From a virus: a stretch of 29,756 nt of DNA. The first letter of the stretch is position 1, and each line of letters opens with the position of its first letter. The stretch lies in the IMG/VR virus record IMGVR_UViG_3300020472_000118, positions 1 through 29,756 of that record. One strand, written 5' to 3'. Position numbers and translations under genes: made by a program. Below the pieces are notes generated by a model, which saw nothing but the letters and a program-made list of their open reading frames with translations, made no database searches and was not told the DNA's origin. Positions 207 to 29,756 of this stretch are shown here, in pieces.

Positions 207-429
207 AGTCGGAAACTTGGTAATTCCAGAGTTTAGCTCCAGGATAAACTTTATCTACCTGATCCTGAACTTCTCTGCGGGATGGAATCTTGATTGTTGG
301 AAAAAACATTTTTATCATGTAGCCTTTTCCTCTCCAACCAAGATAAACATCAACAATATTTCCTCTGCGTGATTTGATTTGAATCGACTCTTTAATGTTC
401 TCCTGTCGAAAATCTGCAAAGGAAATCAT
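163..429 (-). CDS. Conserved-type hypothetical protein, 88 aa
   Basis: The product is small and basic, starting MISFADFRQENIKESIQIK. It has a middle section with aromatic and basic residues (LGWRGKGYMIKMFFP, about residues 30-44) and then SRREVQDQVDKVYPGAKLWNY. The layout looks like a compact alpha/beta domain with no membrane segment. It sits between the small structural genes and gp17, behind its own late-promoter-like CTAAATA (460-454), and overlaps the start of the 47-residue coiled-coil gene. No family is recognised with confidence. The N-terminal SFxxF pattern resembles the short 'SFxxFxEE' openings seen on many T4-like phage proteins, but that is only an impression. A late-expressed packaging or virion-associated role is inferred from context. 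No clear SD precedes the start. Confidence 0.7.
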   Translation of the reverse strand: MISFADFRQENIKESIQIKSRRGNIVDVYLGWRGKGYMIKMFFPTIKIPSRREVQDQVDKVYPGAKLWNYQVSDYEPGAPLLQTGGTS

Positions 430-453
430 TGGGTTTAAACATTATTACTTTAA

Positions 454-460
454 TATTTAG
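454..460 (-). promoter_or_regulatory. Late-promoter-like CTAAATA before the 88-aa gene
   Basis: The minus strand reads TACTAAATATT in the 36-base gap between two genes. The CTAAATA core ends 24 bases before the ATG at 429. It resembles the T4 late promoter TATAAATA and the NATAAATA/CTAAATA variants described for marine T4-like phages, which are recognised by a gp55-type sigma factor. Confidence 0.55.
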
Positions 461-465
461 TAATT

Positions 466-810
466 TTAAGTATTGATAGATGTTCTTATTGCTTTAAAGG
501 TAGTAGAACTACCTGATGCTGGAGTGATTAATAATCTTACATTATTGCTACTAATATCACTATCAAAGGTTGCTAGACTATCTCCTGTCTTCACTATTGC
601 AAATTCTGTATTGAATGTAAGAGATCCATTATGAACAATGATAAACTCTGTAGTATGATAACTACTTCCTTGTGTTACTTGTATTTGATATTTTACTGAT
701 CTAAAACTTGTTTTTGAAAATACATCTAATGCAACCTGAGAAGTGCTAGTTGTAGTCAAACTGGCAACAGTAATATTACTAAAATTTGCTTGACTTAATA
801 ATCTAGGCAT
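466..810 (-). CDS. Small virion structural protein, 114 aa, beta-rich
   Basis: The product (MPRLLSQANFSNITVASL...) is rich in Thr, Ser and beta-branched residues. Its recognisable core is FRSVKYQIQVTQGSSYHTTE (residues about 36-55), followed by IIVHNG, a strand-turn-strand section, and NNVRLLITPASGSSTTFKAIRTS. This pattern is typical of small beta-sandwich structural proteins in marine T4-like phages and is also found inside larger fibre proteins. Two related modules occur in the giant protein of this same window. Its ATG lies within the end of the upstream 110-residue gene (8-base overlap), so the two are probably translated together in similar amounts. A virion decoration or fibre-associated role is inferred. 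Confidence 0.78.
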   Translation of the reverse strand: MPRLLSQANFSNITVASLTTTSTSQVALDVFSKTSFRSVKYQIQVTQGSSYHTTEFIIVHNGSLTFNTEFAIVKTGDSLATFDSDISSNNVRLLITPASGSSTTFKAIRTSINT

Positions 811-1135
811 TTGCAGTTTCCAAGATACTGAGGATTAATTTCAAGCTGCTATTTGCACTTGCTTGAATCTTAATAGAATCACTAGTTTCTAAAACTAATT
901 TTCCATCTAAAGGAATATATGCATCTGATGGAGGTACTGAAGCATCCTTTACAATCTCAGTAGTAGTTGAACTTCTCACATGAGTCATAGTAAAAGTAGC
1001 TGCACTAGTAGTCACATTTGTTACATGTGCATACAACACAATAGCAGTATATCCAGTTGGAGCAGTATAGGCAGTCTGATTAGAATTAGTTACTTCTAAT
1101 GTTTCTGTTTGAAATTTATTAAGTGCGAGTGCCAT
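803..1135 (-). CDS. Small virion structural protein, 110 aa, beta-rich
   Basis: The product starts MALALNKFQTETLEVTNSN and contains TAYTAPTGYTAIVLYAHVTN, a Thr/Ser-rich strand region (TMTHVRSSTTTEIVKDASVP), then GKLVLETSDSIKIQASANSS and LKLILSILE. The 'APxGYxAivLxAxvxNv' and 'GKLvLexxDsIxixAsans' sections are typical of a small beta-sandwich protein common in marine T4-like phages. The fold was not checked. The ATG follows the stop of the 1141-residue gene after one base (TAATATG), and its own TAG overlaps the start of the 114-residue gene, so the three form a tightly coupled set. It is probably a partner or tip of the fibre-like protein encoded just upstream. That pairing is an inference from position. 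Confidence 0.78.
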   Translation of the reverse strand: MALALNKFQTETLEVTNSNQTAYTAPTGYTAIVLYAHVTNVTTSAATFTMTHVRSSTTTEIVKDASVPPSDAYIPLDGKLVLETSDSIKIQASANSSLKLILSILETANA

Positions 1136-1136
1136 A

Positions 1137-4100
1137 TTAACTTAATGCTAGGATAAAGGGTGTCACTTCTGTGAATAGACTCTTACTGAATGATCTTCCA
1201 CTAATTGTACCAGTTTCTTGGTTGATTTGTAAATCATTACCTATTCTAAAATTACCAGCTTGATCAGTACTGGTATAAATCACCTTTCCACCATCTGATG
1301 TAATTACTTCATTTGCTTGAATTGTTACTCCACCACGTTTTGGTGTAGCAGTGGCAATAGTATTTCCAGATCCAACATACTCAAATGTATGGGAACTTGC
1401 AATAATTTTACTTTGTTGGTAAAAATATGCAGTTGAGTTAATACCTACAGCACTAAGTAAATTAGTACCAAGTGTTACTGTAGTAATTCCAGAAAATACT
1501 GGTGTTGAACTATTTATTGCATAATAAATGGGAGACATATTAGCAGTTGCAGTTGCAGTATTAACTCCAACATTAGGTGCTCCAATTGTCACATCAGGTG
1601 TTCCTGTATATTGACTTCCACTACTAATAATAGTAATAGATTTAACAGACTCATCTTCTAAAGTTGCAAATGCTGTAGCAGTTTCTCCATTAGAACCAGC
1701 AGGAGCATCTAAAGTAACTGTAGGAGTAGACGTATATCCTGTTCCTCCAGAACCAACTGTTATTGTGCTAACTTCTTTGAATAAAGTATTAAAATATACC
1801 TGCTGACCATCATAAGGTCTATCAACATCAATAGATGCTGTACCTGCACTTGCTCCAGCGCCAACATAAGTATGAGATAATGTTGAAATTCCTAAATTAA
1901 CTTGAAATGTAGTTGTTGTTGGAACAGCATCAACTTCAAAAACATATGGTTTTTTATGTGGATATATTTTACTACCATAAGCACAAGTAAATCCTATACC
2001 TGATAATGTAACTCCCATACCCACTGCAAATCCATGAGCAGCAGTGGTAGTAACAGTAGCTTGACCAGTAGTATGAGTATAAGCAACTCCACTAATAGTT
2101 CTAGTGGGAGTGTTTATATCAAGAGTTACTTCAGCTTGAGAAACAGCAGCAGTAGATGTAACAATTCCTGTAAACTGAAGTGGACCTACACCTCTTGCTA
2201 CTAATCCTTTAGTTCCAAAACTACAGTTACTATTTGCTATATCTGCTTGTCCACCTTGATCACAGGTTACTGCTTCATCACAACATATTGTAAACAATGA
2301 AACTAACTGTGCAAATCCACCATTAGTAACAGCAACACCTATACCACCCTGATTGTATTGAGTGAAAGCATCTACATTCATTGACTTAAGTAGTCTTGCT
2401 TGTGCTCCATCAACTCTAATTCCAACTCCTGTAGTGGTATCACTAGTACAGTTTTGAACATATGGTCCTTTCCATTTACCACCACCTACATTTTCTGCAA
2501 TTTCTGCTGTAGGAAATCCTACTGCAGCAGCAGGAGCAATATGATTTTGGAAAGTCATATTAGCTAACTTAGATCCTTTTCTAACTGAGAATATATCTTT
2601 CTCTGGAGTACTACCTATTACATTTACAGACCTTTGATCATCTCCAACAATAGAAACATTAGCAGGGACTTGTATAGGATTAGTCTCAACATATGTTCCA
2701 GAAAGAACTTTAACAGTAGATCCTGATGTAGCAATACCTACAGCACCAGCAATAGTTAATTTAGCATTATCAATAGATGTTCCATTATTAGAATCATTAC
2801 CATCCTTAGCAACATAGAAAACATTAGGAGCAGAGTTAATACCAGTTGCTCCAGCGTTAATAGTTACATTATCTCCAATAGTAACTGCTGAATTGGTAAT
2901 AGTAACATCTTCATCACCAACTGTAATTTTATTATTATCACCATCAATCTCAATAGAAGATGAACCAACAGTAAGAACTCCTACAATTCTTGCATCACCT
3001 CTAATATCCAAATTACTCATACCAGTGATAATACCAGTAGATTGAATATCAGTTACTGTATGATGATCAAATGTATGAGCTGTTAATATACCACTAAAAT
3101 AACCATCAGTAGCATAAACATCTGCTTCAGTTTTTACATCACCAAGTACATACAAAGAATAATTAGATTTTGCAGTTGTACCAATTCCAACATTAGATAA
3201 AGTATGAATACCAACAGCATCAGTAATCCAAGAAGTACTACCACCACCAGCTACACTAGAAAACTTGAATTTCTTACCAGATGATTGACTAGTATCAACT
3301 TGAAGATACATGCCTTGATAAGCACTGATATTAGTAGAAATACCAGTAATATCATCTAAGTATTGAAGCTCTACTGCACCACCTCCACCAATGGTGAATA
3401 GTTGTTGTTCAACTCTATTAACAAATAATCTATAGTTTGATGCTAAATCTTGAAGGGTAGCAAACTTCTGATTTGTTGGAGTAAGAGGATCTTCTCCTTG
3501 TTTCTGAGAAGGATCAGGACCTATAGGTTTTGATGGATCTGTGTCATCAACATACTTTTCATAATCTTCTTTTAATTCTACTTGCTTTCCTTTTATATCC
3601 TTTACAATCTTATAAAGTTCTTTAATATTAATTCCATAAGTATCACTCTTATCTTTTAATCTTTCAATATCTTCATCATAATATTTTACTTCAGGAAGAC
3701 TATTAACTTCTAATTTTAATTTATTATAATAGTTCTTAAGTTCTCCATGAGACTCACGATGCTTAATATTAGATTCATCTATACTTTTCTCAATATTTTG
3801 CTTTGTTTCATTGAGTTTACTTAATACACTCTTTTTTAACTTTCTATCATCATCCTTAAATTGATTTCTATACTCATATATCTTAAGAGCAGTCTCCTTT
3901 AACTCGTCGTATATTTTATCCTTAGTTTCATTTAAATAATCTTTTACTTCAGTAATTGCAACTTTTTTCTCAAAGTCTTTAGTGTCAATATTTTCTATAA
4001 GTCTTTCAATATCCTGATTAAAGGTATCTCTAAGAGTGTGTAAGTTATCATCTACTTTAGTAAAATCATCTTCAATAACACTAAAAGTTTTCCCAATCCA

Positions 4101-7447: not shown

Positions 7448-8299
7448 TTAACCTATCATATCCAATGGAGGAAGTTCATAAGTATTGGACATATTTTCTC
7501 TTATCTTTTCTAAATCCTTTTCAGCATCTTCATATATTTCTCTACCATTTAATTCAACACCACCAGGTAATTTAACTCCTTGGAACTTCAAAAGATTTTG
7601 ACCCCACTGCTTTTTAATCAAAGCAGTAGCATATGGTTTTAAAAATGAATCATTCCAAACTCTACCATAATCAGATGGATTCAATAACCTAAAACAATCT
7701 ATAACTAAGTAATCACCAACATTAACAGAAGAATAATCAATATCCAAATATAATCTATCTTGTCTCTTATTAAATCTAATCTGTTTTTCTGTAGTTAATA
7801 AAAAGTTTATATCCTCAAGATATGTCTTTGTCATAGCATAAGATAATAACTCAGTAGATCCCCAATAATAAACATCATTTAAGAATAACTGATACTTAAC
7901 ACTAAACATATTATTAGTGATAGTATTACTTCCATCAAAATGAAATATCTTTGTAACTCCTAAAACTTCAGGTGGAACTTGTAAATAATTACTAGCTTCT
8001 TCAAAATCAAAATTTACTGCAGTAGTTGCTATACCAGATGATACTGGAGCAGTGGCAGTTGTAGTTACAATACCAACACCAGTTTTAGATGATTTTCCTC
8101 TATCAATATCTTCTTGAGTTAACTTGTATTTCATGTAGGTCTGATAGACCCCATCAAAATGCCTTTCTTGAAAAAACTGAACTGCATCATCTATTAAATC
8201 TTCTATCTGCTCATCTGCTACATTTATTTCTAAAACTGGCGCGCCAAGTTTCCTCTTACAGTAATCTATAAGTTCTCCTCGAGTGCTTGGTTGCGCCAT
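7448..8299 (-). CDS. 13: Neck protein gp13
   Basis: Gp13 acts with gp14 at the head-tail junction. The 283-residue product (T4 gp13 is about 309) begins MAQPSTRGELIDYCKRKLGAP, then VLEINVADEQIEDLIDDAVQ and FFQERHFDG, the opening seen in marine T4-like gp13 proteins. Later sections include FNKRQDRLYLDIDY and NPSDYGRVWNDSFLKPYATA. The last part, GGVELNGREIYEDAEKDLEK, is a helix typical of the family. It is directly followed by gp14, which supports the call. A late-promoter-like ATAAATA ends 24 bases upstream, and there is no clear SD. An 8-base G/C palindrome, GGCGCGCC, lies in the Gly-Ala-Pro codons near the N-terminus. Confidence 0.92.
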   Translation of the reverse strand: MAQPSTRGELIDYCKRKLGAPVLEINVADEQIEDLIDDAVQFFQERHFDGVYQTYMKYKLTQEDIDRGKSSKTGVGIVTTTATAPVSSGIATTAVNFDFEEASNYLQVPPEVLGVTKIFHFDGSNTITNNMFSVKYQLFLNDVYYWGSTELLSYAMTKTYLEDINFLLTTEKQIRFNKRQDRLYLDIDYSSVNVGDYLVIDCFRLLNPSDYGRVWNDSFLKPYATALIKKQWGQNLLKFQGVKLPGGVELNGREIYEDAEKDLEKIRENMSNTYELPPLDMIG

Positions 8300-17214: not shown

Positions 17215-18783
17215 TTAGAATTGCAAAATGACTTTAATATCTTCTCTTTGATTTGTAGACCTAGTAATAGCAGGTCTATTATCAACATATACTATATCGC
17301 CAGAGTATTTTTTAACTTCAGGATTGGAAATTCCTTGAATAAAACTCTGACCAAGGTAATATGTTCTATTATTTATTACCTCACTGGTAGCAGGAGTACC
17401 AGCACTACCAAAACTAGTATCTATTCCTAAAGTGCCTTCATTACTCTCAATATTAACACTTCCATCACTTGTTGGATTTGCTGTAAATGAATGTAAGGAA
17501 TATCCATAAGTAGGATCAGTTTTTAAAGATCCATCAGTATTAAATCCTACTAAACTCTTATCTTGCCAATACTTTAAAACTGCAGTTGTTTGATCGTATG
17601 ACACTACTCTTCCTACAGCAGTAGAACCCAAACCTACAGTTTGAGTAATTTGACCATCTAAATTAAAAGTAGCTGTAGTTGTTCCAGTTCCTGTAAGTTT
17701 TAAAGCATAAAGAGCACTTGCTTTGGATAAAGATAAATTTGATGTGCTATCATAAGCATGAGGATTTTCTACAATTCCTATTCTAGCAATTTGATTTCCA
17801 GTAATAAAATCTGGATTTTCTGTATCATTTTCAATTCTAGAATAAACTAAAACATTATGAGCACCTAATTCTCTGTAAATATCTGCTCCATGTCCACCTT
17901 CTGGTGGAATAATAACATTAAATATAGGAGAAGTAGTTCCAGTTGGAACTGATCCAGCAACTAAATCTACAGTACCATAAGTATATCCTGATCCCCCTTT
18001 AGAAACTGCAATAGTATCTACTTTAGAATCATTATTAATAACTATAGTTGCTTCAGCACCAGATCCATCACCATTAATAGGAACACCAGTATAAGTTCTA
18101 TTTGCAGTTCCTAATCCAACTCCTCTATTAGTAATTGTTATAATCTTTAATTGACCACTACTAGAGGCATTATCCCTTACTGCAGAATTAACTGTGCTTG
18201 TTTCCCACTCAGTAGGAACAGGAATAAAATTAGTAGAATCAAATTTTGATATTTCACTTGGTTTGATAGTATAAAGATATTTCCAAATATATCCATCACC
18301 ACTAGTTCCTGCTGCTTTTGGTTCTAAATCTGTAAAGGTGGGTTGATCTAATGAAGGTCTACCTGTAGTATTTTCTGGATCTGTTCCATTTTGAAGACAA
18401 ATATAAACTTTAAAATCTTCATTTACTACATAATATTTTGCAGAATATAAACTAGTTGATCCAGAGGGTTTTGCTGTATTTGTTCTACTGATATCTCCTC
18501 TATACATATCATAAGTTATACCTGATGTCCAAGTATGCTTATTAACCATTCTACGTACATCTGAAGAAGAAATCTTCTTCAAAGCAATCATAGTATCCCA
18601 ATAATCATTTTCTTGATCAAAACTATCCTTAGGTGCAGGAGGATCTGCATCCCAAGTAGGTGAATAGTTATTAGCATTAGGCAAACCAACAAAAGCATAA
18701 TAAGCATTGGATGAAGAAGTTGCAGTAGATACAAAATTCTTCGCATTCAATATTCTAAGTTGATCAGTTATAATTGCTGACAT
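17215..18783 (-). CDS. 8: Baseplate wedge protein gp8
   Basis: Gp8 is a structural subunit of the six baseplate wedges. The C-terminal SGDIVYVDNRPAI (494-506) followed by EDIKVILQF closely matches T4 'SGEMIYMENRPPI' and 'EEINILFTF'. DGYIWKYLYTI (163-173) matches T4 'DGYVWEYLFEI'. The N-terminal SFDQENDYWDTMIALKKISS (54-73) and WTSGITYDMYRGD also fit. At 522 residues it is longer than T4 gp8 (334). Part of the excess is a 'TNRGVGLG...SKGGSGYTYG' repeat (about 212-285), of the type also found in gp14 and the large proteins. A late-promoter-like ATAAATA ends 18 bases before the ATG, and no SD is visible. It is followed after 6 bases by the DUF4815 gene. Confidence 0.93.
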   Translation of the reverse strand: MSAIITDQLRILNAKNFVSTATSSSNAYYAFVGLPNANNYSPTWDADPPAPKDSFDQENDYWDTMIALKKISSSDVRRMVNKHTWTSGITYDMYRGDISRTNTAKPSGSTSLYSAKYYVVNEDFKVYICLQNGTDPENTTGRPSLDQPTFTDLEPKAAGTSGDGYIWKYLYTIKPSEISKFDSTNFIPVPTEWETSTVNSAVRDNASSSGQLKIITITNRGVGLGTANRTYTGVPINGDGSGAEATIVINNDSKVDTIAVSKGGSGYTYGTVDLVAGSVPTGTTSPIFNVIIPPEGGHGADIYRELGAHNVLVYSRIENDTENPDFITGNQIARIGIVENPHAYDSTSNLSLSKASALYALKLTGTGTTTATFNLDGQITQTVGLGSTAVGRVVSYDQTTAVLKYWQDKSLVGFNTDGSLKTDPTYGYSLHSFTANPTSDGSVNIESNEGTLGIDTSFGSAGTPATSEVINNRTYYLGQSFIQGISNPEVKKYSGDIVYVDNRPAITRSTNQREDIKVILQF

Positions 18784-18801: not shown

Positions 18802-18808
18802 TATTTAT
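18802..18808 (-). promoter_or_regulatory. Late-promoter-like ATAAATA overlapping the giant-gene stop, before gp8
   Basis: The minus strand reads ACATAAATAACTAAAAAATT. The TAA stop of the giant gene (18807-18805) is inside the core, which ends 18 bases before the gp8 ATG. It probably drives gp8 and the downstream DUF4815 gene. Confidence 0.58.
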
Positions 18809-21800
18809 GTATTATAATCTGAGGATTTAAGAGGGTTAGTTCTTTCAACTATTGGAGATGTATTAATTCCAATTAATCCATTAGAATCACCTGCATATGA
18901 TGTAAATACCTTACCATTCAATCTAGGTTGAGTTGCAATTCTTCCCCAACTATAATCACCAAAGAATTCACTATATCCAAGTCCAGTTAATCCATTATAA
19001 TCTTGAACACTTACTGTTACTTGAGCAACATAGGTTAATCCAATTCCTATACCCATAGTTTGAGCAATAGAAACATTTGCAACTTCGTATACATTATCTA
19101 TGAAGGAAGTTCCTATTCCCACTACCGTTCCATCTTGATATAGAGATGTAACTGCATTACCTACATTAGAATTGGAAACTACAAAGTAATACCCTTGAGC
19201 AATTCCACTAACACTCATAGCACTTCCTACAATACTAGCATCTCTGAATAAAGAATCTTTTGGAAGAAGTAAGTCAAATACAATACCAGTAGATGCTACA
19301 CCCACAGATGTGGTGGATATACCTGATATAATACCAAAATCACCAGTATAAGATACATCCTCTATACTTTCTACATATGCAGAAATCTTTGGTTCACCTA
19401 TGAGAACTTGAGGTGGATTAGTGCTAGTATAAGCTGCTCCAGCAGTTGTTACTGTAATAGATGAAACACTTCCACTACTTATTGTAGAGGTAGCATATGC
19501 CCTCTGAAGGGTTCCTAATCCAACTGGGTTAGATATACTTACTGATGGTGCTTCTGTGTATCCTGCACCCACTGTGCCTATAGTTATAGAACTAATAGTT
19601 CCTAAACCAGATACTATAGCAGTAGCAGCAGATCCAACAATATTATCCTGAGAAATAATTCTAATATTCCCTTGGGTAGAAGATTTCTCTTTAGTATTAT
19701 CAAAGAATGTTCTTACATTAGAAACAAAAATTACAGTAGATCCAACTCCAACGGATTGAATAATATTTGTATTTGGATAAATTAATGGTTCATAATGAGG
19801 TCTATCTTTAGGAACTGCTTCTCCATCTATAAACTTATCTTCAGTTTGTCTACACCAATTAAGAGGTCTCTTATAATTTTCATTAGTATTAATACCTGCG
19901 TCACCATAAACATTAGTTAAAAGACTATCAGATGCTAATATTTCACTTACAGTTCTAGAATCTTCATCATAAATCCTATTGTCATCATGAAGTGTTACTG
20001 TATCTCCACGTTTAATAGTTTCTAAAATATCAACATTAGCTACATCAACAGAACCAGTTCCTTCATAGAATAAAATTTTAGAAGTATCTCCTACTTTAGG
20101 TGCTTCTGTAAAATTAATATAACTACCACCATTAAAGGTATATCCATTTTGAGGAACTTGAAGAATATCATTAATAAAGACTAAAAGAGTCAACTCAACA
20201 TTTACATTAGAACCTGGTTTAGATTGAATAGTTTTCTGAGCACCATTTATTTTTAATGGGAAAGAAGTAGATTTATCATCAAACAATGAATCTAAAGGAT
20301 CTATAACTTGGAAGTCTCCAACAGTCCAACCAGCAAAGTTATCGTTATAAACTTCTTCAATTGTTATTTGGAACTCTGAAGAAACACCAGCAAATGATCT
20401 AGTTGTTGGAATTCCAGTAGTCCCTCCCACTGGTATGGTTAAAGTTTGATCCACTCCATAACCATATCCTTCATTTACAATTTCAAATCCAATTACACTA
20501 GATCCTTGACCAACTACTATATTTGCCTTAGCCTGTGTTCCTGAACCAGTAAGAGAAGAAGAACTATATTCTAGTGAAATATTAGAATAAGATAATGGAT
20601 CATCAAATACTACAAATGGTTGATTGGTTGATGTATATCCAATTCCTGGATTGGTAATAGCAATACTTACAATGTTACCACCACTAATAGCAGCAGTACC
20701 AATAAATTCTATATTAGGTATACCAGTTGAAGATGTACCTACACCAACATTTACTACAGTTTGAATTCCAGCTCTATATCCAGAACCACTATTTCCAATA
20801 CTAATAGAACTAATAGTTCCTAATCCAGATACTACAGCAGTTCCACCAGCAGCCACCAATGGTTGATATCCAAATCCTTCTGTAGATCCAACAGAAACAA
20901 TAACACCACCTACAGGAACATTAGCTGCATTAGGATCATATGAAACAGAAGATATAGTACCAGTGAATTGAACAGTAGTAATACCAACATCATCTGTATC
21001 TTCAACAAAAGTATAATCTCCTTCTACACTTACACTACCTGTATCTCTTTTTGGTTCTTGGAATACATCATTAATTAATAATATAGCATTACCTGTAGAA
21101 AATCCTGCAATATTACTTCCATTAGATTTAAGAGTAAAGTTAGTACTGTATCCAGTAAATTGAGGAGAAATATCATCAAAGATATAATTTTTAGCATATG
21201 GTTGATCTGCTTTATTCTTAACTCCAGATCTCATAAATGTCCTACCATTGAAAGTAGAACGAGTTGAAATTCCTGTCCAATCTATACTATCTGGTTCATT
21301 AGATGTAGTTGATATTGGTGTTAGTCCATATGGAGCACTATAAAAATTAAGTGTATTATCTACAATATTATATCCACCTTGCAACTTAGTAACAGATGCT
21401 CCACTAGAATGAGCAGCAACTTCAGTCCCCATCCAAGGTCTAGTAACTAATAATGTATTAGTAGCACCAAATCCTACTGAAGTAACCTTCATTATCTCAT
21501 CACCCATCTTAACAAGATCTCCTCCAAAGATAGATGTAATACCTGATACAGTTATACTATTAGCTGTAGTTGCTACATCTCCAGTCACTGTAGTAGTAAC
21601 TGTAGTAGGAATGATAGGTTTCTGTATTACATTATCAATACTAATGATTGCTTTAGAGTTTGGATTTTGAGCAGTAAGTGAATGAGAAGTTCCTACACCT
21701 ACAGCAGATAATCCAATGTAAGTAGGAATAGTCTTCAATGCATTTTCTGCTGATGTTGCTAATCTTAAAGTAGATTCATCAACTTTAATTGCAAATACAG

Positions 21801-24800
21801 AACTAGAAAGATCTCCACCTGAAGTTTGTATACCAGTTCCATTATGAGCATAAGTTAAAGGTTCCCCAGTTACAAAATAATGATCAGGAATAGTAATAGT
21901 ATTCTCGTTTGTATTAATAACTGTAGTAGCACTACCTACAAAATTTCTCTTAAATATATTTCTCTGCTTATGTTTTAAATCAAATGCCCTCTTAACATCA
22001 GACTCTGTTGAATCATATAGACCATATCCAGTATCAATTGAAGCATTATCCAAATCTATAGTAGTAATAGTACTTTCATCATCTACAACCCTTAAAGCAC
22101 TCTGGAATACCTTAACTTCAACATCAGCATTAGCTAATGGAGTGAATGTAACAGTAGTAACACCTGCTGTAGATAAAGCACTAAAATCTCCAAGATTTCC
22201 TCCACTTTGAGTAATTCCATACTCAGTTATAGATGGAGATGCGTCAGTAGTGGCAACAATAACTTCAGATGCTTGATATTGTTGATTGGTTGTATCTTCA
22301 ATACTTGCAAAATAATAAGCACATTCATAAACACTATTATCAAATGTAGCAATTCCAACTGCAATAGGAGAAGAAGTAGATCCTATAGAAGTTAGTGTAG
22401 AATCTAACAGAGAAGTATTCAATACAGTAGTGCCTACTCCAACAGATTCAGAATTAGTAGATGCAATAGAAACTCTTAAAGTGTTAATTACATAGGTACT
22501 AGCAGTGCTTACATTAGGAGTAAAATTAAGATTAACGTATGATCCAGATAAAGAAGCACTATAAGTACCCAATCCAGGAGTTCCATCTTCACTACCCATT
22601 TCTGTAGTTAACTGTCCATATTCCATCAATTCAACATTAGTACCATCATGAACAACAGTTAATTCATCTACTTCATAGTGTGACTTATCACTTGCTGCAT
22701 ATGAAACTAAAACCTTAGAAGATCTATAGGTTGAAGCAATACCAACAACAGTGGTGGATGCACTGGTTCCTAATGCTAGTGTTTTAGTGCTACTAGCAAT
22801 ATTAATACTATCACCCAATGCAGTGGATCCTATACCTGCCACAGTATCTTCAATATTGAACGCAACAGTAGAAACTGTATAGTCATTTCTTCTAAACTTC
22901 TTAGGATAATAAAGAAGTCTTCCTTCTTCTCCTACTATATCAAAATCATATGATCCTAAATCCCCTACAGTTTCAACTCTTCCATATTGATTTAAATAAG
23001 CAGTTGCATTATCATGTATTAAAGAAACTATTAAAATTTGTCTTTCATCAGTATATCTCTTATCTCTAGAATAAGTAATATATTTCTTATATCTAGCACT
23101 AGATAATAAGAAAGTATCTACTGCCATAAATGGATCAGTTCTTGGATTGCTATTAAAGTTAGGACTAATATCATCAATATCTAATACTCTATTTCCTATA
23201 GATTCAATATAATCTTGAAGAATTTTAGACTCTAATAATATTTCATCTGATACTACAGTTGAATCAATTTCCACAGTTCTTTCTTTAGCAAGATCAAAAT
23301 CAAATACACAATTTAAATCCATTACAGAAACCAAATCAGATATAATATCAAATTTAGTTTCATCTTGAGTAGTACTAAATCCAACATCTCTGTGAGATGG
23401 AACAATCAAATCACTAAATTTTTTAAATCCAGCAGTGTGATTTAAAGAAGATACTGGTTCATTCCATGTATCATATTGTACTTCTGATTGAAGTGCGTAT
23501 GAGAAAAACTGGTAATAATTACTATCAATAATTCTTTGTTGATTATCATTTAAAAATCCTACATTATCTTTCCATCCTTCCTTAACAATAGAAGAAGAAC
23601 CTATATTATAGGAGGAAGTGAATGTAGTATTATTAGTAATAGTTGCTTTAGTTCTAGAAACTTTTCCAGTAATTATACTATTTTTTAGAAATCTCCTCGC
23701 ACCCAATACTGTAACATATCCAGAATTAAGAGATTGAGATTGAATAATTCCAGTTTCATCACCAGACACTACAATTTCTCCTAAATTAAAAGATGCTGGT
23801 TTAGTAGTAACATCAAATATAGGAAAAGTAGATTCTGGTGTAATTCTACCTACTGAGGTAGAAGATTTAAATGCACCTGGAACTTCTCCATCAGGAACAG
23901 TATTCACTAAACTATATCTTACAGTTCCTAAAGTTCCTCCAATATTAGGATCTGTTGCTAATATTTCAAATAATTTATAATTATAATTTTCAGAATTATA
24001 ACCCAAACCAGTGCTTCCTACTCCAACACTTACTCCCTCAATTAATACTTTTTTACCTACTTCAAATGGATAATCTGCAGCATCACTAAAACTAGCTCCA
24101 ATAGTTACAGTAACATCTTTGGTAGTATCATTGTAATCAATATTACTTATTTTTATTCCATTAGAATTGAAAGTAGGAATGACTATTGGAGTATCTGAGC
24201 TCAAGTCATTAACATTTTTTAAAATAGTTACTTCTTCATCACCTAATTTATAATCCAATTCAACATCAGTAACTTTTGAATTACTTAAAGGATCTATAAG
24301 AACTAAATTTGGAGATTCTGTATAATTTGTTCCTGTTGATGTAATTCCTATTTTTTCTAATGTGTGAGAAGATTTTACTTCTAAAACTTGTGGTAAATAA
24401 GCATCTGGTTTGAGAGTTTTATCTACTGGATAGTCAAATCCTATATTTTCTATATCAATACTCTTTATTGCACCTATATTGGTACTAGAAGCCTTAAGTA
24501 TAGCATTTTTACCATGAACAGATGTAATGGTAGAAATACCTGGTAAAATTTTATAATTTTTACCAACATCTAATAATGCAACCTTACCAATGGGTCCATA
24601 AGAAGTTGATGAGTTAGTGATATAGTTAAATTCACCATCCCCTGAAGAATATTCCAATTTCTTAGGTTCAAATGGTATAACAAATGAGAATGTAGTTCCA
24701 CTAGCTCCAACTAATATTTGAGATCCTCCTAAAGATCCAAAAGATAGTTTTAACGCATTTGAAGCAATAATATTAATATCATCTCTAATAATTTCATTTT

Positions 24801-27800
24801 TAACTTTTAAATTTTTAGATTTATTAATTGGTATTAAATTATAATATAAATTTTGACTTATTTGATTTACATTTTTAATAGTTAATTTGGCATTAGAATC
24901 TACACCAATCCTTCCAGATTTTTCAATATTAAAATCAGTTGTTTTTTTAGAACTTTCAAAAACATTATTTAAGTCAATATCAGAATAAATGTTAAAATCA
25001 AATGCACTATATGAATTAGTACCATCACTAAATGATAAAGAAGAATCTGAAAGATCAAAAATTATTTTTTCATTTCTCTCTAAATTAATTCTAGGATTAA
25101 TAGATGCTATTGTTCCTCCAGATGCACTAGTGATAGAAATTACCTCTGGTGCAGTTTTTACTGACTGATAGTAATCATTGCATAATTTAATAGTATTATC
25201 ATCTACAACATACACAAAATACATCCCGTTATTTACCAATCCCCCAGAAGATGTGGTAGCAGTATGAATAATTTTTTGTCCATCAATATAACCATGTCTA
25301 GATATTGTAATAGTGTTATTTGTAGTATTAACATTTCCTGAAACAAAAGTTCTAGGATTAATAACCAATCTTCTATTATAATCATTATATGCTACATTAA
25401 TAGTAGTTGTTATACCTGGATTTGCATTAAAGAAAATATGATCATCAGGTATTAAACCATGAGTAGATGCAGTAGATACTGTTACTACAGATCGTTGAAC
25501 TTGTCCAGTTATAATATCAGAATAATTAGTTTTTAAACTATGATATACACCAGTTCCTATTCCAGTAAAATATAAAGTACTAATATTAGTAATACTATTA
25601 ATTCCTACTATATTACCAGTAGATCCTAATCCAACTGAACCTGTAGCAATTCCAATTAAATCGTTAGATAATTTAGCTGCATAAAGGGTTTGTCCATTAT
25701 CAAGAGTGAAATCCATGATTCCATCAGTGGAAACCCCAAGTGCAGTTCCATCATTTGTTCTATATGTTAAAATATCACCAGTTTTTAATCCATGATCTTT
25801 AAAATAAAGAGATTTTGTAGGAATGAAAATTTCTGATATTCCTGCTCCAGGATTAGCAAATACTAAGGTAGATCCTATACCAACTCCAGCAAGAGTTCCT
25901 AATCCAACAGATTCTTTAGGATCAAAATACAACTCATTATTGATTCTAAAATTATTATTATCAGACCCACCAAGACCAAAAATAAAAGATCTTGGTTGTT
26001 GTGATAATAAAGAAACTGCTGTATGTGAAGATCCTATAGTAGAATCATAATTTCTTAAAACTCTGATTCTAGAAGAAACTTGATCTACATTTAATACTTT
26101 TACTTTTTCAGTGCCAATACCTAGAATATCATTTGATTTAATTAAAAGGGAAGAATCTATTTCTCCATTAATATTAAAGAAAGTAACAATACCAGTGGAT
26201 GTAGTAGCATTTACTTCATTAAACAATCTAAATGTATCTGTAATTACTCCTACATTTCTTATTGAGTTGTTTAATATATTATTAGTGCTTAATCCAGATA
26301 TTGTAACTAATTCTGTAGAAAATAAATTATGAGGAACTGTAGTATAACCAACAACCCCCTTACCCAATGAAGAAAATTCTACATTACTAAAAGTAGTAGA
26401 AGCGATACTAATATTATATACATCTTTTCCTCTAAGAAATGATACATTTGCATTAGCTCCATATCCACCAGTTCCTTCATTATTAAATGAAATTACATCT
26501 CCAACTTGATAATTGGATCCTGCAGTTTTAATTCCTACTGCATTTAAATATCCATCTGCAATGGACATAACCTTAGATTTAGACTTTGTAGATGGACTAA
26601 AAACAAAATCATAATCTGTATTTCCAAAATTAAAATTATAAGGAGAAGTATTTCTAACTAAATTTGTTTTATTAAGATCTATAGTATCTTGATTTGATTG
26701 AAAATTAAAATTATAATCAATAGGTTGAGAATTAAAGGAATCCCCTATAAAATAAGGAAACTGAGGTTTTTTATTATTTTTAAAAGATCCTTCAGAATCT
26801 GTTTCTAAATTTACAGTAGAAAAATATGCATAAGTTCCTCTTGGAAACTCTGGTGTTTTACAAAATCTTCCATTGTGTTCATCTAAATCATAATCGTCAC
26901 TATAAGTAAAATCTTCTACAAAGTATCCTTGAGGGAATAAAAACTCTCCATTTGAATTTTGTGGATTGGGTCTATTTGTTGCTATACCACTAACATATCC
27001 AGATGTAAGAAGTTTAACATCCCCTCCAGTAGGATTTGAATATCCTGAAGGTCCATAAATTGGATGTCCATCATAAGCCCATCCAATTATAGGAGAATGT
27101 TCTTCTGATACTTGTTCTATATCATTTTCATATATTAAATCTGGAGTAAGAATTACCTCCCCATCTATAGTTTTTTTACTATAAACACTTTGTCTTAATT
27201 TTCTAGGTGCATATAAATGATTATATTGCAATCCATAGTTACCATCAGAAACAACCCCATCATCCAATGATATTTTATTTGATTGATATAATTGTTCAAA
27301 CTTATTAACAGTCCATACTTTAGGTACAGAATATAAAGTACACTCAGATCCAGCAGGAGTAATTGATGTTACAATATCTGAAAAAGTATATCCTATACCA
27401 CTATGAACAACTTTAACTGATACTATTTCACCACCTTCAATTACAGGAGTTATAACACTTCCTTGTCCAGATCCAGAAATCTTTAAATTAGGAGGACTAT
27501 TATATCCAGATCCAGAATTAAGAACTATTATATTTGTTACTTTTCCATTTTCTATAACAGGATGGAATTGTGCATCCTTTCCTCTATTGAAAGTAAATGA
27601 AAGTTGTCTATTATAATTGATAATGTCAGATGATCCATATCCAATTCCTCCATCTGCAATATATACAGATTTTATAGACCCTCTTACTATGGGTCTTAAA
27701 GATGCATTAAAATCTTGCCCAGATAAAGTAGATACACCAATATTTCCAGTTATAGATACCTCTATTGGTGGATAATTAAATTCATGAATTCCAGATCCAG

Positions 27801-29610
27801 AAGAAACAAAATCAACATACTTTTGATTTCTTAAGTAGAAATCTTTTGCAGTAGATCCTACACCAACAGCAGATAATCTAAATGAATCATGATCTACCTT
27901 TTTGACATAATAATCAGTCAAAGTAGAAAGACCAACTATAGGAGTTGATTTAGCATCATATCTAATTAAATCCCCAGTCTCATATCCATGATCATTAATG
28001 GTTATTAAATTAAAGGATGTATTAATACCAGTAGTGGTAGAAGTTAATTTATTCTTATATCCAACACCAGAACTAGCAATACTTACAGAACTAACAATTC
28101 TCTTTTTCTCATTACATGTTAATACATGAGTTCCCACTCCATAGTCTGTAAGATTAATAGAGGAAATACCAGCAATAGCATCATCAAAATTAGTATGTAA
28201 AGATACAGTAGTTGAATTTTTAACAGCGCAATAATAAGGAGAGAAAGTAGTTAATCCAGCAACAGCAGTTTGTCCTTCTGGATCATAAGTTATAAATTCA
28301 CCATCTCTAAATTTATGATAAGTACTAAATGCTATAGTATTATTAGTTAAATCTACCAATCCTGCAGATTCTATAGAATTAAACTTTGCAGAATGATCTA
28401 CCAAAGTTAAATTAGGAATTGCAATAGATCCAGACCCATTACCACCAGAAATTTTAATAGTAGGTTGTGATAGATAGTCAAATCCACCATCAAGAACCTG
28501 TATTTCTTCTACACTACCTTCAACTTCACAATAAGCAGATAATCCACTTCCAACTGTAGATGTTGCTGTTAAAATAGGTGGATTAATAACATCATAACCA
28601 TTTCCTTCAGTAAGAACGTCAATTTTTTCTATAGATCCATAATAAATTATATCTTTTGATTTATAATTAAGTATTTCAACACCATTAACCAAAATACCAG
28701 TTTTTCCTGATTCTGTTTTAATTTTATTTTGAGAAGTTACTGGAATTGGTACTTTTCTTATTAATTTTTGAGATTCAATTGTTTTTGATGAAAAATTAAA
28801 TAATTCTAAAACATTATTTGTTATTGTTCCAGAAAAAGATACATAATTATCATTAGAAAGATCTGAAAGACTATGGGAAATTTTTATAGTATTATTATCT
28901 ACCTTTCTAACAAAATATTGTTTTTCTACAATATCTAACTTATTATCTTCATTAACTCCACTATAAACGATATGATCTCCTGTAATAAATCCATGATTTA
29001 CTACTGTTAATTCAGTATCCTCATCATATACCCCAGAACAGAAAATTTTATTATTTGGGATATCTAAAAACTCATTAAAGTAACTTGGAATAGATGAGGA
29101 AGTAATATAAACTACTCCATTATTATCTTTATATGCATTTTGAACATTTGTAGTATAATTACTAGATTCTGGATAATTTTCTAATTTTGCTTTTAATAAT
29201 AATCTTTGAGCTGTATAAGATCTTCCTACTACTAATGTTCCAACACTTTTTACTGTTACTTCCTTATAATTATTAATAACAATAACTTCACCCTCAGTCC
29301 CATTCATAAAGACTGTATCCCCTACCTTAAATGTATGAGGGTCAAATAAAGTTAGTTTATAACTTTCATTTGAAAGATCTGCAATTTCAAAACTTGCTAC
29401 ACTATATGTAGGACAAATATTATAAAATAACTCAGTTGCTTGTAAATTTTTTACTGTTTCTCCAAGATTAGCAGATTCTATAATATCTCCTTCCTTTATA
29501 CCGTAAGTTAGAGGGAAATTTAAATCTAAACCAGATAGTACTCCAGTTACTCTAACTTTTACTACATTAGCAGTTCCAACACCAGAATATCCATAAGCAA
29601 ATACATCCAT
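18805..29610 (-). CDS. Giant modular virion structural protein with YHYH domain (3601 aa from the first downstream ATG; true gene extends upstream)
   Basis: This protein lies just upstream of gp8, the position of T4 gp7, so a baseplate role is likely. It is built of repeated modules. At least six 'HGxxTGDxIxY...VDxxTIxLs' units lie at about 203, 430, 538, 1273, 1437 and 2575. Many 'GGxGYxxxPxixIsG' units occur at about 327, 647-747, 1027, 2927 and 3337. A YHYH domain spans about 835-955 (WAYDGHPIYGPSGY, then DEHNGRFCKTPEFPRGTYAYF and FPYFIG). Two modules related to the free-standing 114-residue protein lie at about 2293-2363 and 2423-2507. A TRPWMGTEVAAHSSG module is near 2720. The C-terminus ends in TSPIVERTNPLKSSDYNT. 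The ATG at 29610 is only the first in-frame ATG after a TGA. Coding clearly continues upstream and no SD precedes it. Confidence 0.85.
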   Translation of the reverse strand: MDVFAYGYSGVGTANVVKVRVTGVLSGLDLNFPLTYGIKEGDIIESANLGETVKNLQATELFYNICPTYSVASFEIADLSNESYKLTLFDPHTFKVGDTVFMNGTEGEVIVINNYKEVTVKSVGTLVVGRSYTAQRLLLKAKLENYPESSNYTTNVQNAYKDNNGVVYITSSSIPSYFNEFLDIPNNKIFCSGVYDEDTELTVVNHGFITGDHIVYSGVNEDNKLDIVEKQYFVRKVDNNTIKISHSLSDLSNDNYVSFSGTITNNVLELFNFSSKTIESQKLIRKVPIPVTSQNKIKTESGKTGILVNGVEILNYKSKDIIYYGSIEKIDVLTEGNGYDVINPPILTATSTVGSGLSAYCEVEGSVEEIQVLDGGFDYLSQPTIKISGGNGSGSIAIPNLTLVDHSAKFNSIESAGLVDLTNNTIAFSTYHKFRDGEFITYDPEGQTAVAGLTTFSPYYCAVKNSTTVSLHTNFDDAIAGISSINLTDYGVGTHVLTCNEKKRIVSSVSIASSGVGYKNKLTSTTTGINTSFNLITINDHGYETGDLIRYDAKSTPIVGLSTLTDYYVKKVDHDSFRLSAVGVGSTAKDFYLRNQKYVDFVSSGSGIHEFNYPPIEVSITGNIGVSTLSGQDFNASLRPIVRGSIKSVYIADGGIGYGSSDIINYNRQLSFTFNRGKDAQFHPVIENGKVTNIIVLNSGSGYNSPPNLKISGSGQGSVITPVIEGGEIVSVKVVHSGIGYTFSDIVTSITPAGSECTLYSVPKVWTVNKFEQLYQSNKISLDDGVVSDGNYGLQYNHLYAPRKLRQSVYSKKTIDGEVILTPDLIYENDIEQVSEEHSPIIGWAYDGHPIYGPSGYSNPTGGDVKLLTSGYVSGIATNRPNPQNSNGEFLFPQGYFVEDFTYSDDYDLDEHNGRFCKTPEFPRGTYAYFSTVNLETDSEGSFKNNKKPQFPYFIGDSFNSQPIDYNFNFQSNQDTIDLNKTNLVRNTSPYNFNFGNTDYDFVFSPSTKSKSKVMSIADGYLNAVGIKTAGSNYQVGDVISFNNEGTGGYGANANVSFLRGKDVYNISIASTTFSNVEFSSLGKGVVGYTTVPHNLFSTELVTISGLSTNNILNNSIRNVGVITDTFRLFNEVNATTSTGIVTFFNINGEIDSSLLIKSNDILGIGTEKVKVLNVDQVSSRIRVLRNYDSTIGSSHTAVSLLSQQPRSFIFGLGGSDNNNFRINNELYFDPKESVGLGTLAGVGIGSTLVFANPGAGISEIFIPTKSLYFKDHGLKTGDILTYRTNDGTALGVSTDGIMDFTLDNGQTLYAAKLSNDLIGIATGSVGLGSTGNIVGINSITNISTLYFTGIGTGVYHSLKTNYSDIITGQVQRSVVTVSTASTHGLIPDDHIFFNANPGITTTINVAYNDYNRRLVINPRTFVSGNVNTTNNTITISRHGYIDGQKIIHTATTSSGGLVNNGMYFVYVVDDNTIKLCNDYYQSVKTAPEVISITSASGGTIASINPRINLERNEKIIFDLSDSSLSFSDGTNSYSAFDFNIYSDIDLNNVFESSKKTTDFNIEKSGRIGVDSNAKLTIKNVNQISQNLYYNLIPINKSKNLKVKNEIIRDDINIIASNALKLSFGSLGGSQILVGASGTTFSFVIPFEPKKLEYSSGDGEFNYITNSSTSYGPIGKVALLDVGKNYKILPGISTITSVHGKNAILKASSTNIGAIKSIDIENIGFDYPVDKTLKPDAYLPQVLEVKSSHTLEKIGITSTGTNYTESPNLVLIDPLSNSKVTDVELDYKLGDEEVTILKNVNDLSSDTPIVIPTFNSNGIKISNIDYNDTTKDVTVTIGASFSDAADYPFEVGKKVLIEGVSVGVGSTGLGYNSENYNYKLFEILATDPNIGGTLGTVRYSLVNTVPDGEVPGAFKSSTSVGRITPESTFPIFDVTTKPASFNLGEIVVSGDETGIIQSQSLNSGYVTVLGARRFLKNSIITGKVSRTKATITNNTTFTSSYNIGSSSIVKEGWKDNVGFLNDNQQRIIDSNYYQFFSYALQSEVQYDTWNEPVSSLNHTAGFKKFSDLIVPSHRDVGFSTTQDETKFDIISDLVSVMDLNCVFDFDLAKERTVEIDSTVVSDEILLESKILQDYIESIGNRVLDIDDISPNFNSNPRTDPFMAVDTFLLSSARYKKYITYSRDKRYTDERQILIVSLIHDNATAYLNQYGRVETVGDLGSYDFDIVGEEGRLLYYPKKFRRNDYTVSTVAFNIEDTVAGIGSTALGDSINIASSTKTLALGTSASTTVVGIASTYRSSKVLVSYAASDKSHYEVDELTVVHDGTNVELMEYGQLTTEMGSEDGTPGLGTYSASLSGSYVNLNFTPNVSTASTYVINTLRVSIASTNSESVGVGTTVLNTSLLDSTLTSIGSTSSPIAVGIATFDNSVYECAYYFASIEDTTNQQYQASEVIVATTDASPSITEYGITQSGGNLGDFSALSTAGVTTVTFTPLANADVEVKVFQSALRVVDDESTITTIDLDNASIDTGYGLYDSTESDVKRAFDLKHKQRNIFKRNFVGSATTVINTNENTITIPDHYFVTGEPLTYAHNGTGIQTSGGDLSSSVFAIKVDESTLRLATSAENALKTIPTYIGLSAVGVGTSHSLTAQNPNSKAIISIDNVIQKPIIPTTVTTTVTGDVATTANSITVSGITSIFGGDLVKMGDEIMKVTSVGFGATNTLLVTRPWMGTEVAAHSSGASVTKLQGGYNIVDNTLNFYSAPYGLTPISTTSNEPDSIDWTGISTRSTFNGRTFMRSGVKNKADQPYAKNYIFDDISPQFTGYSTNFTLKSNGSNIAGFSTGNAILLINDVFQEPKRDTGSVSVEGDYTFVEDTDDVGITTVQFTGTISSVSYDPNAANVPVGGVIVSVGSTEGFGYQPLVAAGGTAVVSGLGTISSISIGNSGSGYRAGIQTVVNVGVGTSSTGIPNIEFIGTAAISGGNIVSIAITNPGIGYTSTNQPFVVFDDPLSYSNISLEYSSSSLTGSGTQAKANIVVGQGSSVIGFEIVNEGYGYGVDQTLTIPVGGTTGIPTTRSFAGVSSEFQITIEEVYNDNFAGWTVGDFQVIDPLDSLFDDKSTSFPLKINGAQKTIQSKPGSNVNVELTLLVFINDILQVPQNGYTFNGGSYINFTEAPKVGDTSKILFYEGTGSVDVANVDILETIKRGDTVTLHDDNRIYDEDSRTVSEILASDSLLTNVYGDAGINTNENYKRPLNWCRQTEDKFIDGEAVPKDRPHYEPLIYPNTNIIQSVGVGSTVIFVSNVRTFFDNTKEKSSTQGNIRIISQDNIVGSAATAIVSGLGTISSITIGTVGAGYTEAPSVSISNPVGLGTLQRAYATSTISSGSVSSITVTTAGAAYTSTNPPQVLIGEPKISAYVESIEDVSYTGDFGIISGISTTSVGVASTGIVFDLLLPKDSLFRDASIVGSAMSVSGIAQGYYFVVSNSNVGNAVTSLYQDGTVVGIGTSFIDNVYEVANVSIAQTMGIGIGLTYVAQVTVSVQDYNGLTGLGYSEFFGDYSWGRIATQPRLNGKVFTSYAGDSNGLIGINTSPIVERTNPLKSSDYNT

Positions 29611-29756
29611 TCTAAGATTTTGCTTAGAAGGAATAACTTGATCTACTCCAGAGCATCCAAAGAACTGATTTAAAGTTTTGGAGGTATAATTAATTGTAGA
29701 AGATGTTCCGTTATCATAATCTACCTTTAAAACTCAAGTAGCTCCAAAACCAACAG
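29611..29756 (-). pseudogene. Upstream coding part of the giant gene, interrupted by an in-frame TGA
   Basis: Upstream of the ATG at 29610 the same frame stays open for 41 codons of normal-looking protein (VLKVDYDNGTSSTINY, later NQFFGCSGVDQVIP). It then meets TGA at 29736-29734. Beyond the stop the frame again looks coding (VGFGAT) up to the window edge. The stop is therefore embedded in coding sequence and is probably a point change or an assembly or sequencing error rather than the true gene boundary. A real disruption, or a short separate upstream protein, cannot be excluded from this window. Confidence 0.6.
29734..29736 (-). other. In-frame TGA codon inside the giant structural gene
   Basis: Minus-strand codons read GGA GCT ACT TGA GTT TTA AAG. 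The frame is shared with the downstream 3601-codon ORF (42 codons before its ATG). Every complete gene in the window ends in TAA or TAG, so this is the only TGA in a used reading frame. Confidence 0.8.

What the first reader, a model, noticed from the sequence alone, without database searches (positions are those of the whole stretch)
29611..29756. In-frame TGA interrupts the giant structural gene although coding continues on both sides
The frame of the 3601-residue protein is open for 41 protein-like codons above its first ATG, meets TGA at 29736-29734, and looks coding again beyond it (VGFGAT). All 14 genes ending in the window use TAA or TAG, and the large ORFs use TGG for Trp without any TGA. 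General recoding of TGA is therefore unlikely. A single-base error (for example TGG or AGA read as TGA), a real nonsense mutation or site-specific readthrough remain open.
Basis: partly seen in the sequence, partly recalled or inferred. Interest (0 to 1): 0.5.

Follow-up and report, generated by a model that had tools for sequence, protein, structure and literature searches.

The report
Contig-tip stop in phage baseplate gene
A stray stop codon 21 bases from the end of a marine phage contig interrupts a giant baseplate gene; an almost identical contig and the relatives examined carry a normal codon there, so it is most likely an assembly or sequencing artefact, or a rare broken variant.

Summary
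On the minus strand the frame of the 3601-codon ORF is open for 41 more codons above its first ATG, meets TGA at 29736-29734, and is coding again for the six codons left on the contig. The ORF is roughly the 3' nine-tenths of gp7 (baseplate wedge initiator, phrog_2885) of a cyanophage-like T4-type myovirus. In relatives the gene starts some 330-345 codons above the site, beyond this contig, so the ATG at 29610 is not the gene start. A second IMG/VR contig (L023) dovetails with this end: 107 of 109 bases are identical, and it reads through with a glycine codon. In 101 related loci the site is Gly in 99, Ser and Asn in two, a stop in none. TGA ends 5 of 15 ORFs checked on L023. The odd base differs from all four closest relatives and is base 21 from the contig tip. 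Best reading: a single-base artefact or minor-variant branch at an assembly breakpoint; second, a real nonsense allele in a minority of genomes. Programmed readthrough, recoding of TGA and gene fission are not supported. No reads were available, so error and rare allele cannot be separated. Ordinary; low interest.

The parts
29734..29736 (-). In-frame TGA, seventh complete codon from the contig end; 99 of 101 relatives carry glycine here
29737..29754 (-). Six gp7 codons above the TGA (VGFGAT), matching VGFGAT in the four closest relatives
29611..29733 (-). 41 gp7 codons between the TGA and the first ATG; conserved in relatives, no ATG, GTG or TTG in frame
18805..29610 (-). Rest of gp7 (baseplate wedge initiator), 3601 codons from an internal Met; phrog_2885 profile positions 376-3358 of 4179
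   Evidence: dN/dS 0.29-0.36 against three close relatives
29648..29756 (-). 109-base dovetail overlap with contig L023 (IMGVR_UViG_3300020472_000714), 107 of 109 identical; mismatches at 29736 (the TGA site) and 29665 (synonymous, CAG/CAA)
17215..18783 (-). gp8-like baseplate wedge subunit (phrog_438), the next gene, as gp8 follows gp7 in S-SM2

Best explanation
The TGA is not a functional element. It is a single-base sequence artefact, or the path of a minor or erroneous read variant, fixed in the consensus at the tip of a metagenomic contig. The contig breaks inside gp7 in a stretch where strains of one cyanophage-like population differ; an overlapping contig ends in the same 109 bases and carries a glycine codon. 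The true gp7 is a single open frame of about 3,970 codons starting about 330 codons above the TGA. Shown: the open frame in relatives and in L023. Inferred: that this genome has it, and the assembly mechanism.
For: (1) Contig L023 overlaps the window end by 109 bases with two mismatches, one of them at the TGA, and reads through as glycine. (2) At the TGA base the window differs from all four closest relatives (L023, L012, L013, L014), while the other L023 mismatch is split between strains (window and L012 one way; L023, L013 and L014 the other), i.e. ordinary polymorphism. (3) Gly in 99 of 101 loci, no stop in any. (4) The odd base is base 21 from the contig tip; it is the only interruption I saw in about 9,800 codons (9,760 in 13 genes), and placed at random it would fall within 7 codons of either contig end about 0.14% of the time (my arithmetic). 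(5) gp7 below the TGA is under purifying selection, dN/dS 0.29-0.36, so the gene is in use. (6) The exact TGA-containing 26-mer matched nothing in viral contigs, while a 32-base pattern with a free base at the site matched one contig, L023. (7) PMC11443906 (abstract read) says that viral diversity makes bulges in de Bruijn graphs that are hard to resolve.
Against: No reads were available, so depth and allele support at 29736 are unknown. Only one near-identical contig covers the site, and the tool notes that records very near the window's own genome may be left out of the scans, so other copies with the TGA could have been hidden. Among 101 loci, none has a stop in the gp7 frame close to the downstream end of the stretch held, so stops at such ends are not common. 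The other genes of the window were not each compared with relatives for interruptions. Whether the window and L023 come from one sample or assembly is not known.
Confidence: 0.78

Rival explanations
1. A real nonsense mutation in gp7, carried by a minority of genomes in the population. Such genomes would be packaged with help from intact ones in mixed infections or be dead ends, since gp7 starts the baseplate wedge in T4 (recalled).
For: Isolated in-frame stops with homology in the same frame on both sides occur elsewhere in gp7: a TGA in L019 and a TAA in L046, both mid-contig. A single base separates the window from its nearest relative at this codon.
Against: The stop is at the extreme contig tip; the overlapping contig and the 101 loci lack it. 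The two other stops could themselves be errors.
Confidence: 0.17
2. Site-specific stop-codon readthrough: TGA is decoded at some rate, giving a short N-terminal piece of about 330 residues and the full giant gp7.
For: The frame is conserved on both sides. In-frame stops in bacterial genes under purifying selection have been reported (PMC7918605, abstract read).
Against: The stop is present in 0 of 101 loci and absent from the near-identical contig. No Rfam family matches at its gathering score and ARAGORN found no tRNA gene in the window or L023; the rest of the genome is not held.
Confidence: 0.02
3. Gene fission: gp7 is split here into two genes, the second starting at or below the TGA.
For: gp7 is annotated as two genes in phage B23, with an ATGA overlap, and locus L078 has a stop at the matching place with the same ATGA arrangement.
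Against: That split lies some 2,500 codons further down. Here the first in-frame start is 41 conserved codons below the TGA, and in relatives the frame runs at least 327 codons further up before a stop. No Shine-Dalgarno-like motif stands before 29610, but this says little: by eye most of the 11 other gene starts printed lack an obvious one too (6032 has AGGA).
Confidence: 0.02
4. The virus reads TGA as an amino acid throughout.
For: None of the 14 ORFs checked that end in the window uses TGA as its stop.
Against: Zero TGA in 9,760 codons against 38 TGG. TGA ends 5 of 15 ORFs on the dovetailing contig with none inside those 15, and ends gp7 in L005 and L007. The site is Gly in relatives.
Confidence: 0.01

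Closest known systems
gp7, baseplate wedge initiator, of Kyanoviridae cyanophages (Synechococcus phages Bellamy and S-SM2; Prochlorococcus phage P-TIM68)
   Same: The first 2,933 residues of the ORF match these gp7 proteins over their whole length at 37-42% identity. gp7 is followed by gp8 as in S-SM2, and then by a very large gene in both (not compared). PHROG family 2885.
   Different: The window lacks the first 330 or so codons, because the contig ends, and has one in-frame TGA that these relatives lack.
IMG/VR contig IMGVR_UViG_3300020472_000714 (L023)
   Same: Dovetails with the window end by 109 bases, 107 identical, and supplies the gp7 N-terminus after ORFs that are gp25-like and gp6-like by place and size.
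   Different: Glycine codon in place of the TGA; one synonymous difference.
In-frame stops in prokaryotic genes under purifying selection (PMC7918605, abstract only)
   Same: Stop inside an otherwise conserved gene.
   Different: There, evolutionary conservation is the argument for function; here the stop was found in no relative.

Membership tests
gp7 baseplate wedge initiator (phrog_2885) | Profile match over most of its length | tested here: met
   E=0, 2904.8 bits, profile 376-3358 of 4179 from residue 2 of the ORF; a piece of the L023 contig matches positions 212-361
gp7 baseplate wedge initiator (phrog_2885) | Place between gp6 and gp8 in the baseplate cluster | tested here: met
   gp8-like gene downstream in the window; gp25-like and gp6-like ORFs upstream of gp7 on L023 by place and size as in S-SM2. 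These two L023 ORFs were not searched against a profile library.
Programmed stop-codon readthrough | Stop conserved at the same site in homologues | tested here: not met
   0 stops in 101 loci
Programmed stop-codon readthrough | Both products, short and extended, made | not testable with these tools
   needs proteomics
Genome-wide TGA reassignment (such as code 4) | TGA inside genes and not used as a stop | tested here: not met
   0 TGA in 9,760 codons; TGA is the stop of 5 of 15 ORFs on L023
Sequence error at a contig tip | Close to the contig end, private to one contig, sense codon in an overlapping contig | tested here: met
   base 21 from the end; L023, L012, L013 and L014 differ from it
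Sequence error at a contig tip | Reads do not support the base | not testable with these tools
   no reads held

The most novel reading that the evidence does not exclude
A recent real nonsense allele segregates in a wild cyanophage population. gp7 would be supplied to such genomes by co-infecting intact ones or by leaky readthrough, giving a measurable load of defective genomes.
Probability: 0.1. Interest if true: 0.35.

Novelty: not a real feature. Interest (0 to 1): 0.08.

Why it matters
It closes a possible recoding or readthrough lead and warns that ORF starts near contig ends can be false: the 3601-residue 'giant protein' is an N-terminally truncated gp7 and its start codon an internal methionine. 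Such tips can create false gene fragments in viral catalogues.

Tried and rejected
Out-of-frame translations were of no use; the frame was fixed. Recoding, readthrough, fission and a genuine start at 29610 were considered and rejected (see rivals).

I looked for an exact assembly signature. The TGA base is base 21 from the window tip, which is what a bubble of 21-base words would leave. But the other mismatch is 18 bases from the tip of L023 and does not fit, and the assembler is unknown, so I do not rely on it.

I looked at whether gp7 interruptions are common. Of 101 loci, 5 meet a stop within 2,000 codons below the site: a change of frame in L016, L071 and L010 (S-SKS1, several), and isolated in-frame stops in L019 and L046. 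L009 (B23) and L078 stop about 2,500 codons below, at an ATGA overlap. At the L019 and L046 stops the relatives vary in residue, unlike the conserved Gly here. I did not test whether these are errors.

Rows dropped: for the stop count on L023 I took 15 of the 23 ORFs listed, leaving out those on the minus strand, those that start with GTG (three of them, one kept) and the open gp7 itself. L001 (the window) and L022 (same contig as L023) were left out of the 101 loci.

Paper searches: (contig ends and assembly errors) gave nothing used; one search gave PMC7918605 (abstract read); (baseplate wedge initiator, cyanophage) was seen as a listing only; one search gave PMC11443906 (abstract read).

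Full report
Observation. The frame of the 3601-codon ORF (18805-29610, minus strand) extends 41 codons above its first ATG, meets TGA at 29736-29734 and continues for six codons to the contig end. The 13 genes checked plus the small ORF at 63-206 end in TAA or TAG, and no TGA stands in frame in the 9,760 codons of those 13 genes. The window is a stand-alone virus record of 29,756 bases, so the odd base is 21 bases from a physical end.

What the gene is. tblastn of the first 2,933 residues of the ORF matches 463 phage records; their names begin with Synechococcus (372), Cyanophage (61), Prochlorococcus (24) or Marine (6). The best annotated matches among the 20 listed are baseplate wedge initiator gp7, e.g. 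Bellamy and S-SM2 at 41-42% over the full query. PHROGs assigns phrog_2885, baseplate wedge subunit, with residue 2 of the ORF at profile position 376 of 4179. The next gene is gp8-like (phrog_438), as gp8 follows gp7 in S-SM2. In Bellamy and S-SM2 the annotated gp7 begins 386 and 388 codons above the point that aligns with the start of the query. The ATG at 29610 is thus an internal methionine, and the gene's real start lies outside the window.

What stands at the site elsewhere. Of the 11 relatives found with the protein just below the TGA, one, L022/L023 (IMGVR_UViG_3300020472_000714), ends inside the window's own terminal region. It dovetails with it over 109 bases with 107 identical and carries a glycine codon at the site. 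Its gp7 starts at 7855, which puts the site at codon 331. L012, L013 and L014 differ from the window at 8, 15 and 16 of the same 109 bases and also have glycine. Over 101 loci (10 phage records, 91 IMG/VR contigs; L020 and L021 look like duplicates) the residue is Gly in 99, Ser in L007 and Asn in L011, and never a stop. The wider set was ranked with L012 as query, which has Gly, so there may be a mild bias towards Gly; the search pattern itself did not include the site. The tool also notes that records very near the window's genome may be left out.

Boundary test. Reading the gp7 frame from the site in these loci, the nearest upstream stop met in any of them is 327 codons away, and 88 of 101 are open downstream to the end of the stretch held. 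So the site is deep inside one gene. The stretch after the TGA evolves under constraint: dN/dS 0.33, 0.36 and 0.29 against L012, L013 and L014 over 1,577, 1,325 and 680 codons.

Code test. TGA is a working stop here: it ends 5 of 15 ORFs that I examined on L023 (of 23 listed), with none inside those 15 (some of these small ORFs may not be genes), and it ends gp7 itself in L005 and L007. ARAGORN found no tRNA gene in the window or L023, and Rfam found no match at the gathering threshold.

Why artefact or minor variant. At the TGA base the window stands alone against its four closest relatives, while the other L023 difference is a polymorphism shared among strains. Two contigs of what looks like one population end within the same 109 bases, as expected where an assembly graph breaks on strain variation (inference; the PMC11443906 abstract, describes such bulges). 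That the one interruption seen in about 9,800 codons lies in the seventh codon from the tip is unlikely by chance (about 0.14% for either end; my arithmetic). Against this, no reads could be examined, near copies may be hidden from the scans, none of the 101 loci shows a stop close to the downstream end of its stretch, and isolated in-frame stops do occur inside other gp7 contigs (L019, L046), so a real rare nonsense allele stays possible.

Verdict. The thing itself is most likely a contig-tip artefact in an ordinary cyanophage gp7 gene.

Noticed in passing
L009 13422-13425 (phage B23) and L078 near 17909: gp7 is split into two genes at the same place by an ATGA overlap in both, which looks like a real, shared gene fission of the giant baseplate protein.
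   Followed up: partly
L019 3114 and L046 7298: Single in-frame stops (TGA, TAA) in the middle of gp7 on IMG/VR contigs, with homology continuing in the same frame.
   Followed up: partly
L010 4864-17250 (phage S-SKS1): gp7 homology is spread over several ORFs in different frames in a deposited genome: real decay or splitting, or sequencing errors.
   Followed up: partly
L023 7855-8931: The gp7 N-terminus appears to hold two copies of a short repeat (DSTTGFP...GLIEID...YTG...FTGCSRG and DSTVGFGATG...LKVD...YTS...FFGCSG); the TGA site lies in the second. Seen by eye, not tested.
   Followed up: no
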